A stretch of DNA of 33,428 nt from Methylococcaceae bacterium (GTDB lineage: Bacteria; Pseudomonadota; Gammaproteobacteria; Methylococcales; Methylomonadaceae), in contig DAOUTG010000021.1 of the NCBI GenBank assembly GCA_030626845.1, positions 1-33,428 of the forward strand, written 5' to 3'. Each line of letters begins with the position of its first letter. The first letter of the stretch is position 1. The notes under the pieces are model-generated. The model was given only the letters and a program-made list of their open reading frames with translations. It was not told where the DNA came from and made no database searches. Below, piece by piece: positions 2 to 32,751 of this stretch. Both the position numbers and the translations under genes were made by a program.

Positions 2-133
2 CATGACCTAAAAGGTCAATGGAGTGGCTATAGAGAATTGCACATTAGTGGAGATTTAATTTTAATTTATAAAATTCAAAATGATACTCTATACCTATTG
101 CGAATTGGAACTCATGCTCAGCTATTTGAGTAG
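2..133 (+). CDS. YafQ/RelE-family mRNA interferase toxin, C-terminal fragment
   Basis: Only the last 43 codons lie inside the window; the gene begins upstream of base 1. The visible part matches the C-terminal half of YafQ toxins: an LKGQWSGYRELHISGD stretch and the ending RIGTHAQLFE, which parallels RTGTHAALFG of E. coli YafQ as I remember it. Residues equivalent to the YafQ catalytic set are visible: the first His of the fragment, the His in RELHI, the Asp of SGD, and the His and Phe of THAQLF. Family knowledge: YafQ cleaves mRNA in the ribosomal A site and is neutralised by DinJ. The antitoxin would normally lie upstream, outside the window. The family assignment is firm; whether the gene is intact cannot be seen. 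Confidence 0.8.
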   Translation, partial: HDLKGQWSGYRELHISGDLILIYKIQNDTLYLLRIGTHAQLFE

Positions 134-4368: not shown

Positions 4369-4697
4369 TTTATGGAATTAAATAGATTCTTAACTTTGGT
4401 TAAGAACAATACCTACGTCAAACGTTAAAGGTCAGGTTAAAACTTGAAATTTTCAACTATAAGCTCTTGATTTTATTAATCCCATATTTCTTACCAGTGT
4501 TTAAAACAAGGCTAAAATACAAATTGGCGTAGGTAGCGTTAATGAATAATAGAAAAGGGTTGCATCCCATTTTTCCTAGTGGAACAGGGTTCAGGTAAAA
4601 TAAAGTGTTTTGTTGTGCCTGTGTTGAATGATTTGGTGTGTCAGTATTAGCAATTTATTGTTAATTTTTCTACTAAAATAATAAAGAGGTTCAAGGA
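4369..4697. other. Intergenic region with a short palindrome
   Basis: These 329 bp hold no gene that I can support. TTCTTAAC-TTTG-GTTAAGAA at 4387-4406 is a perfect 8-bp inverted repeat just after the glutaredoxin stop. It could terminate that transcript or bind a regulator, but no T-run follows it. The rest is AT-rich and should hold the promoter of the NERD-helicase operon; AAAGAGG at 4682-4688 is a fair ribosome site for the ATG at 4698. Confidence 0.4.
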
Positions 4698-7619
4698 ATG
4701 TCTTTTCATGTTTATCGAGCAACTGAATTTAATCATGCTCATGAAAATAAAGTTTTTGATAAGTTGCATGATTTGTTAAAATCACAATGGGCTGAACGTG
4801 ACGAGCCTTTTTATCTACTTGGAAATTTTTTTGTAGATGGCAGTGAGATTGATGCTTTAGTAATCAAGCGCAATGCTATTATCGTGATCGATTTTAAAGA
4901 TTATGGAGGAAATCTCAATTTTTCAGAAAATGGGCGATGGCTTATTAATGGCTGTGAGGTACGCGGGGGTAATAAAAGAAATCCTTTTCAACAAATCCGC
5001 GATAATAAATATCAGTTACTTAATTTTCTGAAAAAACTAGAATTTTTATCTAATCCTAACCTTAGTCATATTGCAGGTTTATGTTTGTTTCATCAATCAA
5101 TTAAATTTGATGAAAACCAATTGCCACACAACCTTTCTCGTTGGTTTCATATTACGGATATGAATACTGCTATTCGTATGGTTAATGCAATTGTCAGTTC
5201 TGAAATTAATCTATCCGACAAAGACTTTGAATTGTTATTAACTAAATTAGATATTCCCCCTTACTTTCCAGATGGGAAGGCTGTTGAGGTAATATTTGAT
5301 GATGTAAAAGATATTGAAATTAATAGTCAGCTTAATACTCAACAAACTAAGGCATTAGTTGCTATTAAAGATTGGCTAAAGAGTACAAAAACTAAAGTAT
5401 TTTCATTATCTGGAGCTTTTTATACAGGTAAAACTAAATTATTGAAATTTGCTGAACAACATATTATTCAACAGGGTAAATCACCCATATATTTAGCTCC
5501 TAATGCCCGAATTGCTAATTTATATAATACAAGGGGACTTAGCGATGTCAAAAGTATTTACTCATGGCTTTATGCAAGCAGATATGAAATTAAAAATGAA
5601 AAAGCAGTCTATTCTATTAATTTAGATTCTTTAATTGATAGTGAAAAGGACATTTTAATTTTTTTAAATTCACATTTGCTTGGAGATGAATATTTTGAAA
5701 CAGATACAACAATTTATGGTAGCGGTTTTGTTCTACAAGACTTATTAAATACTTTACTTGGAAAGCCAATCGAAAATACGAATATTCAATCTTCACTTGA
5801 ACTTAAAAACTTACCTAAAATTTTACTTGTTGGCGATCCTTATCAATTAACACGAGGAGCAAAAGACAAAAGCTTGCTTTGTTGTAAGGTTTTTAAGCAA
5901 AGAAACATTGAATATGAAGAGATTGAACTAAATGCTCAAGACCGAGATGTTGATGCACCCATTGAACGTTTAGATTTCCAAAAAACGATTATTGAGGAAA
6001 TAAAATCAAATAAATTTATTCAGTTGCCAATTTGTAAACAAGATAAAATTAAAACCATTAATAAAGGTCAAAATACAGAACAAATTGCCAAATATTTATT
6101 GCAGTGGCCTAAAAAGACTTTTTATTTATGCGCAAAAAATGAAACGGCTCACCGTGTTAATACGGCTATTCGACATAAATATTTAAAAACAAATAATGAT
6201 TCAACTTTAATTATTGGAGATATTGTTGATCTTCATAACCGTACTTTAAAATTGAATTCTAATCAATTAGAAGATACTAAGATTGAATTGATTAATGCAG
6301 GAAGATTTGATAAAGTTATCTGGGCTGACAATAATATTGATCTTCATAACCGTACTTTAAAATTGAATTCTAATCAATTTGAAGATACTGAAATTGAATG
6401 GATTAATGCAGGAAGGTTTGGTAAAGTTATCTCGGTTGACAATAATATTGATACTAAATCACAATCATTAAAAGGACGAAACACTCCAGTATTAGTAAAT
6501 TTTTCTACAGCAGTAATTGAGTTTGGTAATGATAAAGCGGAGATACTATATCTACCTGATTATCTTTTCGCAGAAAAACCAGAACTAACTCAAGATCAAA
6601 TGATTGCCTTGAAAATATGGGCAAGAGAAGAAGCAGACCAAAAATTAACCGATGAAAAAGTTAAACTTAATGAATTAAAAAACAAAGATAAAGAAAAATA
6701 TGAATTAGCAAAGGAAGTTTATAACAAAAAACATAGTGAACTTATGATGAACAGCGCATTCACAAATGCCGCACGGCTAAGATTTGGCTATGCTTTAACT
6801 GTTCATCGTGCGCAAAATTATAATCCAATGCCGCAAGTTATTCTTGATGGACAAAGTGCGCATGATACAGAAAATCCTGCTACGGATAGTTATTTTAGGT
6901 GGTTATATACCGCTACCGTATGCACCTCAGATTCTTTGCAAATACTTAACTATCCTACATTAACCCCCTTATCCAAAGCGTATTGGGATTCATCTTCAGC
7001 TCGATTATTACCTATTATTTTTAAACCTAAACTTTATTATCAACAAAACCGTTTGCCGACTAATAAAGAAATGAGTATTCCTCTTCCTAATGGTTTTTCT
7101 AATCCTGAGCCACAATTATATGTGTTATTCTTAACTGTATACGATTTAATCAGTGAAACTGATTGGGATATTAAATCAATTACTCAACACAATTATAAAG
7201 AACGATATTTATTTTCCTGTGATGATGGAAAGGTAGAGCTTGATTTAAATTACAATGGGAAATATGAAGTTTCTATAGGTATTGCAAAAGCTATTGAAGG
7301 TGCTTCTGAGCTTGCTACTCATATTAAACAACAACTTTGCAACACGCCACCAATATTTAAAGAAAAAAATATCGAAGATGCCGAATCTATATTTAGCGAC
7401 CATTTAGCTAAACAGAACTGGAGAGTTATATCAGTAGATGAAAAAAATTATAAACTTTTTGTAATAATAGAAAATTATCTTGGTAAAGCAAATATAGAGC
7501 TTAATGTTCCTTCCGATTCATCTATATCACAAAAAGGCATGATTAGTAGCATTAAAGTTCAACAGGCAGATTCAAAAGAAGTATTAGAACAATTTGAAAA
7601 GGATTTTATAAATGGCTGA
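4698..7619 (+). CDS. NERD nuclease domain fused to an SF1 (UvrD/RecD-like) helicase, putative defence protein
   Basis: This is a 973-residue protein. The N-terminus (about 10-120) is a NERD domain, a PD-(D/E)XK nuclease fold: E17, D52, then D65-F-K67 (IDALVIKRNAIIVIDFKDY) and NPFQQIRDNKYQL. A helicase-type NTPase follows: Walker A GAFYTGKT at 239-246, a motif III-like GDPYQL at 379-384, and ALTVHRAQNY at 699-708, resembling the UvrD C-terminal 'LTVHKAQG' motif. Two expected features are not found: the Walker B Asp-Glu position reads ILIFLNSHLL (319-328) and motif VI reads YTATVCTS (737-744) without an arginine. Residues 511-584 are a 37-residue tandem duplication. The stop overlaps the next ATG by 8 nt (ATGGCTGA). 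NERD-helicases are typical of nucleic-acid defence or repair; the function here is inferred. Confidence 0.75.
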   Translation: MSFHVYRATEFNHAHENKVFDKLHDLLKSQWAERDEPFYLLGNFFVDGSEIDALVIKRNAIIVIDFKDYGGNLNFSENGRWLINGCEVRGGNKRNPFQQIRDNKYQLLNFLKKLEFLSNPNLSHIAGLCLFHQSIKFDENQLPHNLSRWFHITDMNTAIRMVNAIVSSEINLSDKDFELLLTKLDIPPYFPDGKAVEVIFDDVKDIEINSQLNTQQTKALVAIKDWLKSTKTKVFSLSGAFYTGKTKLLKFAEQHIIQQGKSPIYLAPNARIANLYNTRGLSDVKSIYSWLYASRYEIKNEKAVYSINLDSLIDSEKDILIFLNSHLLGDEYFETDTTIYGSGFVLQDLLNTLLGKPIENTNIQSSLELKNLPKILLVGDPYQLTRGAKDKSLLCCKVFKQRNIEYEEIELNAQDRDVDAPIERLDFQKTIIEEIKSNKFIQLPICKQDKIKTINKGQNTEQIAKYLLQWPKKTFYLCAKNETAHRVNTAIRHKYLKTNNDSTLIIGDIVDLHNRTLKLNSNQLEDTKIELINAGRFDKVIWADNNIDLHNRTLKLNSNQFEDTEIEWINAGRFGKVISVDNNIDTKSQSLKGRNTPVLVNFSTAVIEFGNDKAEILYLPDYLFAEKPELTQDQMIALKIWAREEADQKLTDEKVKLNELKNKDKEKYELAKEVYNKKHSELMMNSAFTNAARLRFGYALTVHRAQNYNPMPQVILDGQSAHDTENPATDSYFRWLYTATVCTSDSLQILNYPTLTPLSKAYWDSSSARLLPIIFKPKLYYQQNRLPTNKEMSIPLPNGFSNPEPQLYVLFLTVYDLISETDWDIKSITQHNYKERYLFSCDDGKVELDLNYNGKYEVSIGIAKAIEGASELATHIKQQLCNTPPIFKEKNIEDAESIFSDHLAKQNWRVISVDEKNYKLFVIIENYLGKANIELNVPSDSSISQKGMISSIKVQQADSKEVLEQFEKDFING
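6228..6449 (+). repeat. 111-bp tandem duplication inside the NERD-helicase gene
   Basis: Copy 1 is 6228-6338 and copy 2 is 6339-6449, exactly 111 bp apart and in frame, giving two 37-residue units each beginning DLHNRTLKLNSNQ and ending DNNI. The copies differ at scattered positions (for example LEDTKIELINAG against FEDTEIEWINAG), so the duplication is not brand new. It lies between the nucleotide-binding core and the C-terminal helicase motifs. Confidence 0.95.
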
Positions 7620-9084
7620 ACACCCTTCTCAACAAGTAACTCAATTAAGAAAATCAGGTGATTTACAAAAGGCTTGGAATATTGGCTGTGCTGCTTTACA
7701 ACAAAACCCTAATGATACCTATTTGAAAGGAGCTTTTTTTTGGGTTTGTTATGACTACTTAAAAGCCGTGTAAAACCCAATTACTGAGCGAGGTAAAAAA
7801 AATGGAAATTTTCGCCCAAATGATAACGAATTTGGACGGATTGAATCATTATTAGGGAATGTAATGTGGCTTAATATTGAAACAGGAGGCTTTGAATATA
7901 GTCGTTTACTCCAATTATTTCGTAAAAATTTATCATTTTTTCCAAGTCTAGTTCATTGCTTATTAAATCATCAAGATACATTATTTACTGAGGAAGATAA
8001 ACAACCTTATCGGCATGATAAAGGCGAATCGCCTAGTTTAATGCTAAACAGTGCAAGACAAGTAGCAAAAGCTTGGATGGAATCAGGAGAACGTTTGAAT
8101 TTATCTATTGATAGTGTATTAAGTTTATTGGATAAAACAAGAATACAGACTCAAGATAATCAACATAAAATTTGGTTAGATTATGATGAGGCGAAGTGTT
8201 TAATAATGGCAGGGCGTAATAATGATGCTCGCGAATTTATAATTCCAGTTTTAAAAAAGAAACAATCTGAATCATGGGCATGGGGTGCTTTAGCAGCCAC
8301 ATATCGCAAAGAAAATACCAATGTAGCAATTACATTGTTTACACAAGGCTTATGTCATGCTCATGATGAAAAGTTTGCCTTACCCCTTCTCAAAGGGCTT
8401 GCTCCTTTACTAGCATCAAAAAGTTTTATTAAAGAAGCTTCAATGTGTATTCAAAAGGCTACTAATTGCTATCAAGAAAATGGCTGGAAAATAAAACCTG
8501 ACCTAGAGAAACTATTAAATGAATCTTGGTTTGATAGAACTGTAAATCTTAATGAGTTAAATTCATTTTTAGAACAGCAGTCGCAAGGAGCAATAGGTTT
8601 TTTATATGGTTCAACAAGATTAGCATTAGGACTAGTTATAAAATTGCATAAATCAGGTAAAGGGCTGAATCTTTACTTATCTGAAAATGAAACCATTTCT
8701 GTTCCTTTAAGATTATTCAAAAAACAAAAAACACCCGCATTAGGAAATCATGTCAACATTACTGTTTCAGAAGATAGGGAAGAAAAATCGGTCATTGCGG
8801 CTGAACTAACATCGCCTCAATATCTTTCAGGGGTTGAAAGTTTTCAAGGAACGTTAAATGTTAAAGAAAAAGGTTTTGGTTTTGTGGAAGATACGTTTAT
8901 TCCTGCTTTTTTAATTAAAGATGGTATAGATAATCAGTTAATTGAAGGTCTTCGTTTTAGACAGTTTGATAAGAAAAAAGAACGACTCGGTTGGTGTGCC
9001 GCATCAATAATAGCGATTGAAGAAAACGAAACCACAGCTCTTGAATACATCAACAGTCAAATACAAGAGATAAACGATGCCTGA
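7612..9084 (+). pseudogene. TPR plus cold-shock-domain protein, interrupted by one in-frame stop
   Basis: An ATG at 7612 overlaps the helicase stop by 8 nt and opens a frame (MAEHPSQQVTQLRKSGDLQK) that meets a TAA at 7771-7773 after 53 codons. The same frame then continues without another stop to 9084. Counting from ATG 7864, residues 112-210 look like TPR-type helical repeats and residues 328-380 look like a cold-shock/OB domain with RNP1-like KGFGFV at 336-341 and a GWCAA end. An earlier beta-rich stretch (242-315) may be a second OB fold. ATG 7864 has AGGGA upstream, so the 406-residue downstream part could be translated alone. Either the gene is a recent nonsense mutant, or the stop is read through, or the base is wrong. 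Its role, perhaps RNA or ssDNA binding beside the helicase, is inferred from domains and linkage. Confidence 0.65.
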
Positions 9085-9307
9085 AATCTGCCGCTTCTAT
9101 GGAATCATTATCAGAATGTACCTCATTGACCGCGAACACCCGCCGCAACCTATTTATATAAAATACGGAGAAAATGAAGCCGTTATGGAACTAACCCACC
9201 TCAACATCATAGAGGGAAAACTTCCTAAAAAATGCCGTCAACTTGTCAAAGAATGGGCTGAAATACATCAACAAGAACTGATTAAAAAATATGACTGTAA
9301 GGTATAA
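9077..9307 (+). CDS. DUF4160 domain protein
   Basis: This 76-residue protein begins MPEICRFYGIIIRMYL, the usual start of DUF4160, and ends with the typical LPKKCRQLVKEWAEIHQQEL helix. The conserved HNPPHFH-like stretch is degenerate here (REHPPQPIYIKYGE). DUF4160 genes are commonly paired with DUF2442 in arrangements resembling toxin-antitoxin loci; no DUF2442 gene follows. The ATG overlaps the preceding stop by 8 nt (ATGCCTGA), the same arrangement as the helicase/TPR junction, so it looks translationally coupled as the third gene of that operon. Confidence 0.75.
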   Translation: MPEICRFYGIIIRMYLIDREHPPQPIYIKYGENEAVMELTHLNIIEGKLPKKCRQLVKEWAEIHQQELIKKYDCKV

Positions 9308-9315
9308 ATGGGTGC

Positions 9316-9365
9316 TGGAGAGCTGACATCTTGTTGGTTATAGCCGCTTGGAAGACAGCTCTCCA
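9316..9365. terminator. Long hairpin between convergent DUF4160 and thiC genes
   Basis: Arms TGGAGAGCTG (9316-9325) and CAGCTCTCCA (9356-9365) are perfectly complementary. TCTT (9329-9332) and AAGA (9352-9355) extend the stem inward past a 3-nt bulge. It sits between two converging stops and is probably a bidirectional terminator, although no long T-run follows on either strand. Confidence 0.45.
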
Positions 9366-9392
9366 TCTTAAATTATTACCCTTTTATTTCCT

Positions 9393-30534: not shown

Positions 30535-32751
30535 CTATGATCCAAACGATGACCCTTGGAGTCTTATCATCCAAGGTTCTTTATTTTTTGGATTAACATG
30601 AAAAGCTAATGATTCATTTTTATACAGTAGACCCTTTTCACCCGATGCATTAGGATTTAATTGACGTTTTTCAACAAAATCAACCATTCTTTTCGTGTTA
30701 TAAATCAACAAAATTCGTGAGCCATTTTTATTACTATAAACTTGATAAGCCACATTAGCCTCTTCAAAATTTGGATTACGCGCAATTAAAGACTCAATTT
30801 TATCGGTATCATTTTGCGCTAAATTTTTTAAAATAGATTCATCTCGTGTTTCAATTTGTGTTTTTAAATACATCGCTAAAGTTTGCTGTTTTTGATGATC
30901 TTGAAAGATTTCAACTTCCTTAGTACTCACATCAAAACTTTCAGCTACAAGATAGTGTTGATCTTTTTGACCATCATTGGCAAAAAGTGATATTTTATCT
31001 AAAGAGGACTCTTCTATCGCATGTAAAAATGAACGCGGCGCCCGTAAATGTTTATAAACAGTAATGACCCAAGGTAGCGCACGTCCTGTGGCCTCATAAC
31101 GGGATAACACACTACTAATAACGCCTTCTCTTTGTAATTCTTGTTCTCGTCCTTTAGGTTTAACAATAAACGCATCCACAGCAATTACCTGTGATTTAAA
31201 ACCAACTTGTTTAAATTGCTCAACAATATCTAAATAACGCGGAATGAAAGGGATTCCAGTCCCATCATATAAAAGATTAATGCGGTTTTCTTTAGCATGT
31301 TGCGCGACTAAATAACGTAAAAGATTGGCAAAAGGTTCAACATAAACATAATCATCACTATGATGATCTGCGGCAGTTAATACATTATAAAGATCACTTT
31401 GTTTACGAAACTCATCTAATGAGGCAATCACAAAGTTATCGCCACATTGCGCTTGAGCCATTTCTTCAACTGCCGTTTTACCCGCGCCTGCCCCCCCCAT
31501 AGAAATAAATAGTTTAGGCTTATCATCTGGCAATTTACCTTTAAAAATGGTTTGTTTAGTGGCTTCTAATTTAAAAACCATTTTTTCAATTCTAGGAATA
31601 GCAATAGCTACTGTCCGCTGTAAACGTTCATCATCTTTCGCAGCTTCTAATAATTTATTTTTTAACGGTTCATTATTAGCAAGCAATAATAAAGAAGCGT
31701 CTTCACCTGCACATTGTTTTAATAATTCTAGCAACTGCATTTGCCCAACTGAGCTTAAACCAGTCAAAATATTAATCTCTAAACAAAATAAAGGGACTTT
31801 CCCATTTTCGCCAATCAAAACCCCATCAATATCTGTTTTACTAGGATGACGTAATGCCTCTGTATTGGGTAAATAACCAATAATATTATCCGCTTCACAT
31901 AAGGGATAATCTGCTAAATGTTTTCCTGCTGAAAATAATTCTTTTTTGATTGATGCTAAGGGCACTAACGCGCCATTTATAGCCACTAAACACTTAATAC
32001 CCTTTTCTTTAATCGGTGCATTATCTTTGGGAATATAAGAGTCTTCTCCTGTGATATGTGACAGAAAGGGCAGCCCTGCAATATATTTCTTATTTTCAGG
32101 CCATTTCCCATATCCATTGGCTTTATTAGCTAGGTTTCGATTACGACTAGAGTCTAACGCATGATCCAAAGCTACAATGATAGGCAGTAGATTTTTATTT
32201 GAACGATGTAAGGCAATGGCATCACGTTGATTAAGCCGTCTAAAATCAATCCCCTGACCATAAACGGCATTAAAAGAAGGTAATTTTCCAAGAATAGTCA
32301 TAAAAAAGTCTAAGGTAATTCTATTCCCATAATTAAACGGTCGGATAGAGCGCATTCTAAGATAAAATCTCGCTAATCTTCTAGCAATATTTTTGGACTG
32401 AATAACAAAACCATTATTATCAAAAATAGCGGTTTTTTGATGACGATCCCCATCTAAAACTAATTTTTCAATGGCTTGTCTAAATTTTCGGCGTTTTTTT
32501 GCATCAGGCATTGTACCTGGGCGATGAGAAACCGTCGCTTGCTGTTGCCAGTGATGAAAAATCTCACGATGAATTTCTGAAAACAAACCAATTAAATAAC
32601 TAACACGCTTAGTTTGATTATGCGCAACCGTCGCCGATGTTTTTTGCAATAAGGTATATAATAATTTTGTCCCTTGTGAAATGGCGAGTGCCGTGCGTAG
32701 TTTTTTTAGTTGCTCATTATTTGAGTTTGGCAACATGATTTGTTTATCCAT
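30535..32751 (-). CDS. Large protein with Fic-like region and zeta-toxin-like kinase domain
   Basis: This is a 738-residue soluble protein. Residues 115-195 resemble a Fic fold: IARRLARFYLRMRSIRPFNYGN (122-143), followed by RITLDFFMTIL, then GIDF and a helix. The usual HPFxxGNGR active site is altered (R137-P-F-N-Y-G-N143-R), so AMPylation activity is doubtful. A middle part has IDGVLIGENGKVPLFCLEIN (308-327), loosely like a PD-(D/E)XK core without its Lys. Residues 413-560 resemble a zeta-toxin/P-loop kinase: Walker A GGAGAGKT (419-426), LDEFRKQ (445-451), LLYDGTG (493-499) and a basic segment KPKGREQELQREG. Zeta toxins phosphorylate UDP-activated sugars. AGGAGAGG precedes the ATG. No small antitoxin gene flanks it. 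Function is not known; Fic and nuclease readings are inference. Confidence 0.7.
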   Translation of the reverse strand: MDKQIMLPNSNNEQLKKLRTALAISQGTKLLYTLLQKTSATVAHNQTKRVSYLIGLFSEIHREIFHHWQQQATVSHRPGTMPDAKKRRKFRQAIEKLVLDGDRHQKTAIFDNNGFVIQSKNIARRLARFYLRMRSIRPFNYGNRITLDFFMTILGKLPSFNAVYGQGIDFRRLNQRDAIALHRSNKNLLPIIVALDHALDSSRNRNLANKANGYGKWPENKKYIAGLPFLSHITGEDSYIPKDNAPIKEKGIKCLVAINGALVPLASIKKELFSAGKHLADYPLCEADNIIGYLPNTEALRHPSKTDIDGVLIGENGKVPLFCLEINILTGLSSVGQMQLLELLKQCAGEDASLLLLANNEPLKNKLLEAAKDDERLQRTVAIAIPRIEKMVFKLEATKQTIFKGKLPDDKPKLFISMGGAGAGKTAVEEMAQAQCGDNFVIASLDEFRKQSDLYNVLTAADHHSDDYVYVEPFANLLRYLVAQHAKENRINLLYDGTGIPFIPRYLDIVEQFKQVGFKSQVIAVDAFIVKPKGREQELQREGVISSVLSRYEATGRALPWVITVYKHLRAPRSFLHAIEESSLDKISLFANDGQKDQHYLVAESFDVSTKEVEIFQDHQKQQTLAMYLKTQIETRDESILKNLAQNDTDKIESLIARNPNFEEANVAYQVYSNKNGSRILLIYNTKRMVDFVEKRQLNPNASGEKGLLYKNESLAFHVNPKNKEPWMIRLQGSSFGS

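What the first reader, a model, noticed from the sequence alone, without database searches (positions are those of the whole stretch)
4698..9307. Three-gene NERD-helicase / TPR-cold-shock / DUF4160 operon, a candidate undescribed conflict system
The genes are joined by two identical 8-nt overlaps (ATGGCTGA at 7612-7619 and ATGCCTGA at 9077-9084), which implies translational coupling and a shared role. The domains combine a nuclease fold, an SF1 helicase-like core, a TPR scaffold with an RNA/ssDNA-binding cold-shock-like domain, and a DUF4160 protein of the toxin-antitoxin sphere. The block sits in an accessory-looking area with a YafQ toxin, an Rpn nuclease and IS debris within 5 kb. I know of no named system with this composition.
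Basis: partly seen in the sequence, partly recalled or inferred. Interest (0 to 1): 0.75.

Follow-up and report, generated by a model that had tools for sequence, protein, structure and literature searches.

The report
Decaying TOTE-type phage-defence gene pair
Two of these three genes are a probably broken copy of an already catalogued bacterial conflict system, the third is an unrelated toxin-gene remnant, and the interesting twist is that this lineage appears to have lost its helicase motor while keeping its nuclease.

Summary
The three genes are there, but they are not a new three-gene system. Genes A (4698-7619) and B (7612-9084) match PADLOC candidate PDC-M16A/B and carry the Pfam domains TBP-TOTE and S1CSD-TOTE-2, so the pair is a TOTE-type (TPR, OB, TBP, Effector) conflict system. 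Of 21 named-genome loci that encode B, 18 have an A-type gene directly upstream; none shows DUF4160 in the DNA held (with controls). Gene C is a shortened DUF4160: its closest plasmid relative, 72% identical, sits beside DUF2442, and the window copy does not. One point looks new. Gene A and three other NERD-type A proteins form a clade that lacks the helicase Walker B Asp-Glu pair and the motif VI Arg but keeps the NERD nuclease motif. Between two of them dN/dS is about 0.1. These three relatives lie in BREX loci, next to PglX and PglZ genes; the window copy does not. Mechanism is inferred.

The parts
4698..7619 (+). Gene A: NERD nuclease domain, RecD2/Dda/Pif1-like SF1B (pseudo)helicase and TBP-TOTE domain, 973 aa
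   Evidence: (PDC-M16A E 1.8e-260)
4737..5039 (+). NERD domain (residues 14-114); PD-(D/E)XK-type motif D52, D65-F-K67 kept
   Evidence: the assignment of these residues as catalytic is recalled knowledge of the PD-(D/E)XK fold
5412..5435 (+). Walker A GAFYTGKT (residues 239-246), kept in the window copy
5667..5672 (+). Walker B position: N324-S325 where relatives with a live motor have D-E
6226..6452 (+). 111-bp in-frame tandem duplication (2 copies; 103 of 111 bases identical) in the helicase region; not seen in the other 22 A proteins of the alignment
6921..6923 (+). Motif VI position: Cys742 where relatives with a live motor have Arg
7110..7310 (+). TBP-TOTE domain (residues 805-871)
   Evidence: PF22721, 44.8 bits, cut-off 27
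7612..9084 (+). Gene B: DUF7017/TPR-like and S1/cold-shock-like protein (PDC-M16B), interrupted by an in-frame stop; overlaps A by 8 nt
7771..7773 (+). In-frame TAA, codon 54 of gene B
7864..9084 (+). Remaining open frame of B (406 aa), with DUF7017 at 8170-8592 and S1CSD-TOTE-2 at 8836-9009
9077..9307 (+). Gene C: lone, shortened DUF4160 gene (DhiT-like, 76 aa), judged not part of the system; overlaps B by 8 nt

Best explanation
Genes A and B are a TOTE-type conflict system (PADLOC PDC-M16). Gene A is one polypeptide: an N-terminal NERD nuclease (the effector), an SF1B helicase fold and a C-terminal TBP-like domain. Gene B is a DUF7017/TPR-like scaffold with an S1/cold-shock-type domain expected to bind nucleic acid. 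Most likely mechanism (inferred): B and the TBP/helicase part of A together recognise phage or foreign nucleic acid, and the A-B complex then lets the NERD domain cut DNA. In the clade to which this copy belongs the helicase lacks the Walker B Asp-Glu pair and the motif VI Arg, so it probably serves as a nucleic-acid-binding clamp or switch rather than as a motor. In this genome the copy is probably not fully functional: B has a nonsense codon near its start, A carries a tandem duplication, and the BREX setting of the other members is absent. Gene C (DUF4160) is probably a shortened remnant of a DhiTA-type toxin-antitoxin pair that happens to lie downstream. Shown: domain and family matches, A-B linkage, motif differences, the stop codon, no DUF4160 in the other loci. 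Inferred: the sensing and cutting steps, the pseudo-motor role, loss of activity.
For: PADLOC and Pfam matches. A lies directly upstream of B in 18 of 21 named-genome loci; by the starts that I assigned, 15 of 18 overlap and 3 of 18 are 3-6 nt apart. From the A side: in the phylum sample 4 of 4 genomes over 250 bits besides the window's own also encode B beside A. DUF4160: none in 21 loci and two E. coli loci, while four control sequences were found. The effector end varies: DUF4145 instead of NERD in the E. coli A, while its B is 44% identical to the window's. Walker B DE and motif VI Arg are present in 20 of the 22 other A rows and absent in L044 and L045 (three of the 20, from E. coli and two Shewanella, are close copies); one search adds L098 (both absent), L079 (both present) and the fragment L021 (DE absent, motif VI not covered). 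With the motif columns left out, window+L044+L045+L098 form a clade (95/96). dN/dS of A between L044 and L045 is 0.111, helicase part 0.104. Defence context: BREX around L044, L045 and L099; type I restriction enzyme beside L036; Druantia-E beside L100; Hhe annotated about 10 kb from an E. coli copy. DUF4160 relatives stand next to DUF2442 in 3 of 3 plasmids opened, of 26 with a match.
Against: No experiment in anything that I saw shows anti-phage activity for this family. The window copy keeps Walker A (GKT), so nucleotide binding is not excluded. TBP-TOTE falls below the Pfam cut-off in L044 (24.2 against 27) and is not reported at E<=0.01 in the L099 protein. The stop in B could be an assembly error, and ATG 7864 could allow a shortened B. 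dS above 1 makes the omega values rough. Neighbours for the PADLOC scans were chosen by eye without a random control; 8 of 10, 7 of 10 and 8 of 9 matched something, often only in part, and both window proteins in the second scan matched nothing. The parsimony count of motor loss is 2, not 1, because L021 is unresolved and L079 (motor kept) lies in the same open fork. Many plasmid matches to A cover only its NERD end: 0 of 97 records cover 80% of A, and the two Acinetobacter ones opened are lone NERD proteins.
Confidence: 0.82

Rival explanations
1. A genuine three-gene system in which DUF4160 is the toxic effector released when the A-B sensor fires.
For: The 8-nt overlap of B and C; DUF4160 is listed for the toxin of dhiTA (passages of PMC8198452).
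Against: No DUF4160 in 21 of 21 B loci; the window copy is 76 aa against 84 in its 72% relative, differs from it at the HIH residues and has no DUF2442 partner.
Confidence: 0.05
2. The helicase changes are simple decay of a pseudogene in this one genome, not a property of a clade.
For: Stop codon in B, tandem duplication in A, no PglZ match in the genome.
Against: The same positions are changed in L044, L045 and L098, whose A frames are open and which lie in BREX loci with an open B; omega about 0.1 between L044 and L045.
Confidence: 0.15
3. A-B is a housekeeping or repair pair (RecD2/Dda-like) rather than a defence system.
For: Structure and sequence matches to Dda, RecD2 and Pif1; housekeeping neighbours in the window.
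Against: Patchy: A in 8 of 200 and B in 5 of 200 genomes, the window's own counted, none in 5 congeners; 53 of 5426 E. coli genomes, with 24 of 53 places on plasmids; defence neighbours elsewhere.
Confidence: 0.07

Closest known systems
TOTE conflict systems (TPR, OB, TBP, Effector; Aravind, Iyer and Burroughs 2022, as cited in PMC12458937)
   Same: TBP-TOTE in A, S1CSD-TOTE-2 in B, a nuclease effector, linked genes.
   Different: Here NERD, helicase and TBP are one polypeptide and the helicase lacks Walker B DE and motif VI Arg. I did not read the review, so whether it notes such members is unknown to me.
PADLOC candidate PDC-M16 (A and B)
   Same: B matches positions 1-467 of 472; A is covered by two overlapping sets of PDC-M16A models, residues 1-546 and 545-973.
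   Different: B is interrupted by a stop here; gene C has no PADLOC match at E<=1.
TALON (YprA-like helicase + NERD + TPR-CSD + TBP; PMC12458937)
   Same: NERD, TPR-CSD and TBP components (passage).
   Different: The passage describes a YprA-like helicase, largely in Chloroflexota; the helicase here is RecD2/Dda/Pif1-like.
DhiTA toxin-antitoxin (DUF4160/DUF2442; PMC8198452)
   Same: Gene C is DUF4160.
   Different: NCBIfam DhiT score 69.9 against a cut-off of 100; no DUF2442 beside it; shorter than its relatives.

Membership tests
TOTE conflict system | TBP-like domain | tested here: met
   PF22721 44.8 bits over cut-off 27 in the window A; below cut-off in L044 and not reported in L099
TOTE conflict system | OB-type S1/CSD domain | tested here: met
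   PF22707 60.9 bits, cut-off 27, in B
TOTE conflict system | TPR scaffold | tested here: inconclusive
   DUF7017 142.2 bits; TPR_19 16.6 bits, below cut-off 25
TOTE conflict system | Effector domain | tested here: met
   NERD PF08378 46.9 bits, cut-off 22.1, with D..D-x-K kept
TOTE conflict system | Anti-phage activity | not testable with these tools
   no bench work
PADLOC PDC-M16 | PDC-M16A and PDC-M16B side by side | tested here: met
   B has one TAA inside
Active SF1B helicase | Walker B Asp-Glu | tested here: not met
   N324-S325
Active SF1B helicase | Motif VI Arg | tested here: not met
   Cys742
Active SF1B helicase | Walker A GK[ST] | tested here: met
   GAFYTGKT
DhiTA toxin-antitoxin | DUF4160 next to DUF2442 | tested here: not met
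   two DUF2442 in the genome, on C3 and C88, none on C18
BREX-embedded defence gene | Lies between pglX and pglZ | tested here: not met
   not in the window and no PglZ match (PDLC02547) in the genome; seen for L044, L045 and L099

The most novel reading that the evidence does not exclude
There is a distinct TOTE lineage in which the NERD nuclease is fused to a catalytically dead helicase that selection keeps as a sensor or clamp, and which outside this genome lives inside BREX operons between pglX and pglZ. Its A protein can be paired with different B lineages: in the window, B groups with B genes of DUF4145-type systems rather than with the B genes of its A relatives.
Probability: 0.4. Interest if true: 0.6.

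Novelty: new variant of a known kind. Interest (0 to 1): 0.4.

Why it matters
It corrects the proposed new three-gene system to a catalogued one and offers a test: if NERD-type TOTE proteins without a motor still protect cells, the helicase domain in these systems can act as a nucleic-acid sensor rather than an engine. The BREX setting of the three relatives found suggests a nuclease module layered onto BREX, and the A/B discordance suggests that the TPR-CSD protein is an exchangeable partner.

Tried and rejected
A single-protein scan of genome contigs with A found no relative; viral-contig scans with B, with alignment A4 (A) and with alignment A3 (B) found none. Phage records: no match for A, one weak match for B (22%, E 3e-6). 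Megablast of the window block in E. coli: none; the E. coli relatives were found with the p1585m1_C DNA instead.

Rejected: DUF4160 as part of the system, and a defence island in the window itself. IS debris was not recognised in the 8 ORFs scanned within 5 kb, apart from the label of the PDDEXK_2 family. Empty-site comparison was uninformative: of five congeners four were looked at; glutaredoxin was found in each (in L108 cut by the contig end), thiC does not follow it in the stretches held, and neither A nor C matches there. Promoter-like and terminator-like sites were fewer than in shuffles. A possible excess of breaks in B (single stops in the window, L037 and L040) rests on too few cases to claim.

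Rows dropped or not used: L037 and L054 were left out of the B trees because their B is split; L050 and L046 were left out of the later B trees as long branches; B genes of L016, L017, L018, L025 and L095 were not used. Holding the window B with the B genes of its A relatives is rejected at p 0.0008 (21 rows, L044 and L045), 0.011 (19 rows, L044 and L045) and 0.007 (21 rows, L044, L045 and L099); long branches are in play. The structure model has mean pLDDT 68.7 and pTM 0.57, so its PDB matches are used only for the helicase fold. The BREX search used PglX and BrxC pieces from L044 and PglZ and BrxL from L045, so those two loci match by construction; only L099 is independent there.

Papers: PMC12458937, PMC12839542 and PMC8198452 were seen as passages only, all others as search listings. 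Aravind et al. 2022 and the source of PADLOC's PDC names were not read. Searches: 'TOTE conflict system', 'PDC-M16' and NERD/inactive-helicase terms gave no paper; TOTE or TBP/TPR with conflict systems gave only PMC12458937; NERD+BREX+helicase+pglX gave four papers, of which passages of PMC12839542 and PMC12458937 were seen. PMC12839542 has no occurrence of TOTE, TBP or TPR in its main text; its supplements were not searched.
Full report
What is there. Gene A (4698-7619, 973 aa) carries NERD, sub-threshold SF1-helicase matches and TBP-TOTE. Gene B starts at 7612 and overlaps A by ATGGCTGA, but read from that ATG it stops at TAA 7771-7773, codon 54; the rest is open from ATG 7864. B has DUF7017 and S1CSD-TOTE-2. 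Gene C (9077-9307) is DUF4160. The second overlap is ATGCCTGA, so the two are alike but not identical. A 111-bp duplication lies in A at 6226-6452; its two copies share 103 of 111 bases.

What A and B are. PADLOC matches are PDC-M16A (E 1.8e-260) and PDC-M16B (E 4.2e-151 for the 406-aa frame, 3.7e-23 for the first 53 residues). TOTE is spelled out in print as TPR, OB, TBP, Effector (passage of PMC12458937). A profile of 18 A-type proteins matches RecD2, Dda and Pif1 entries in the PDB, and Foldseek with a model of the window A gives Dda, RecD2 and Pif1 too.

Distribution. Among 200 genomes of relatives, the window's own counted, A matches in 8 (some only in part or weakly) and B in 5, and neither in the five congeners. 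In E. coli 53 of 5426 genomes match the related A-B pair of plasmid p1585m1_C, 42 over at least 80% of it, with 29 chromosomal and 24 plasmid places. In a class sample PDC-M16B is in 2 of 369 genomes, the window's own counted. In a phylum sample PDC-M16A matches 34 of 398: 5, the window's own counted, exceed 250 bits, and the other 29 are short matches under 60 bits. On plasmids A matches 97 records, none over 80% of its length, and B matches 65, of which 53 over at least 80%.

Linkage test. A scan with three B proteins gave 21 loci from named genomes. An A-type gene lies directly upstream of B in 18 of 21. The exceptions are L034 (contig edge), L050 (no A match) and L046, where pieces of RnlA and an RnlB gene precede B. 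From the A side, the four genomes besides the window's own that exceed 250 bits in the phylum sample all encode B beside A (L076-L079); in the sample of the family of the Halomonas genome L095 does and L096, a NERD-only match, does not. DUF4160 is found in none of the 21 loci nor in two E. coli loci, apart from one 16-residue match at E 0.47 in L031, whereas all four control sequences are found (first run without controls). The DNA held downstream of B is 389 bases in L039 and at least 2,047 in the other 20. In L099 and L100 the only hit was a 28-residue match at E 0.64. In the window genome DUF4160 occurs three times; two copies have DUF2442 beside them, the window copy does not. Its closest plasmid relative (Methylococcus sp. 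EFPC2, 72%) is paired with DUF2442, as are the two others that I opened, of 26 records.

Effector exchange and partner discordance. The E. coli A has DUF4145 instead of NERD. In the A tree the window groups with the Halomonadaceae and G1181 proteins (95/96 with motif columns removed). In the B tree the window groups with the Alcanivorax and Cyclobacteriaceae B genes (95/97), and holding it with the B genes of its A relatives is rejected at p 0.0008, 0.011 and 0.007 in three row sets. Long branches make this suggestive, not proven.

A motor lost. In the 23-row alignment 20 of the 22 other A proteins have DE at Walker B and Arg in motif VI; L044 and L045, like the window, have neither. One search adds L098 (both lost), L079 (both kept) and the Leptolyngbya plasmid fragment L021 (Walker A and B changed; motif VI not covered). 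L044, L045 and L098 also have GKR in Walker A. The NERD motif D..D-x-K is kept in the window, L044, L045, L098, L021, L053 and L005; the N-terminus of L079 lies off its contig. Between L044 and L045 omega is 0.111 for A, 0.104 for the helicase part and 0.118 for B, with dS above 1. The simplest reading is selection on a protein without a motor; the count of losses on the tree is 2 because L021 is unresolved.

BREX. L044 reads BrxC end, PglX, A, B, a 421-aa ORF, PglZ. L045 reads a PglX 3' end at the locus edge, two Leo-like genes, a PglZ/PglX remnant, A, B, two ORFs, PglZ, BrxL. L099 (G1181) reads PglX N-part, an RT-nitrilase gene, PglX C-part, A, B, PglZ, BrxL. A search of 36 loci, several of them short, with PglX, PglZ, BrxL and BrxC pieces taken from L044 and L045 matched those two and L099 and no other. 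The three may go back to one insertion, so they are not three independent events. A piece of the pglX 3' end recurs after B in L044 and twice in L045. The window genome has no PglZ match.

Verdict. A+B: a known kind, probably broken here. C: an unrelated remnant. The motor-less NERD lineage in BREX is the part worth following; it rests on four complete A proteins and one fragment.

Noticed in passing
L046:3148-4562: In Methylococcaceae UBA4132 the TPR-CSD gene B follows pieces of RnlA (RNase LS toxin) and an RnlB antitoxin gene instead of an A gene; Foldseek also gave weak matches of the window A model to RnlA (E about 1e-3).
   Followed up: partly
L044:9295-9476; L045:3-344 and 4608-4925: Extra copies of the pglX 3' end lie near the A-B genes, which may be a trace of insertion at pglX.
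   Followed up: no
L099:12376-15429: An RT_UG5-nitrilase (DRT-type) gene sits between two parts of a PglX gene inside a BREX locus.
   Followed up: no
window 30535-32751: 738-aa protein with a Zeta-toxin domain (PF06414, E 3.2e-16); no PADLOC match at E<=1e-5.
   Followed up: no
window 2-133: 3' end of a YafQ toxin gene cut by the window edge.
   Followed up: no
window 9301-9380: Imperfect inverted repeat (30-nt arms, 70% complementary) between gene C and thiC; not called as a terminator.
   Followed up: no
L022:7001-7837 and L023:7001-7837: Acinetobacter plasmids carry a stand-alone NERD protein related to the N-terminus of gene A (31-36% identity) without helicase or B.
   Followed up: no
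L037:7749-9158; L040:7743-9164: Two other B genes also carry a single in-frame stop (TAG, codons 283 and 30).
   Followed up: partly
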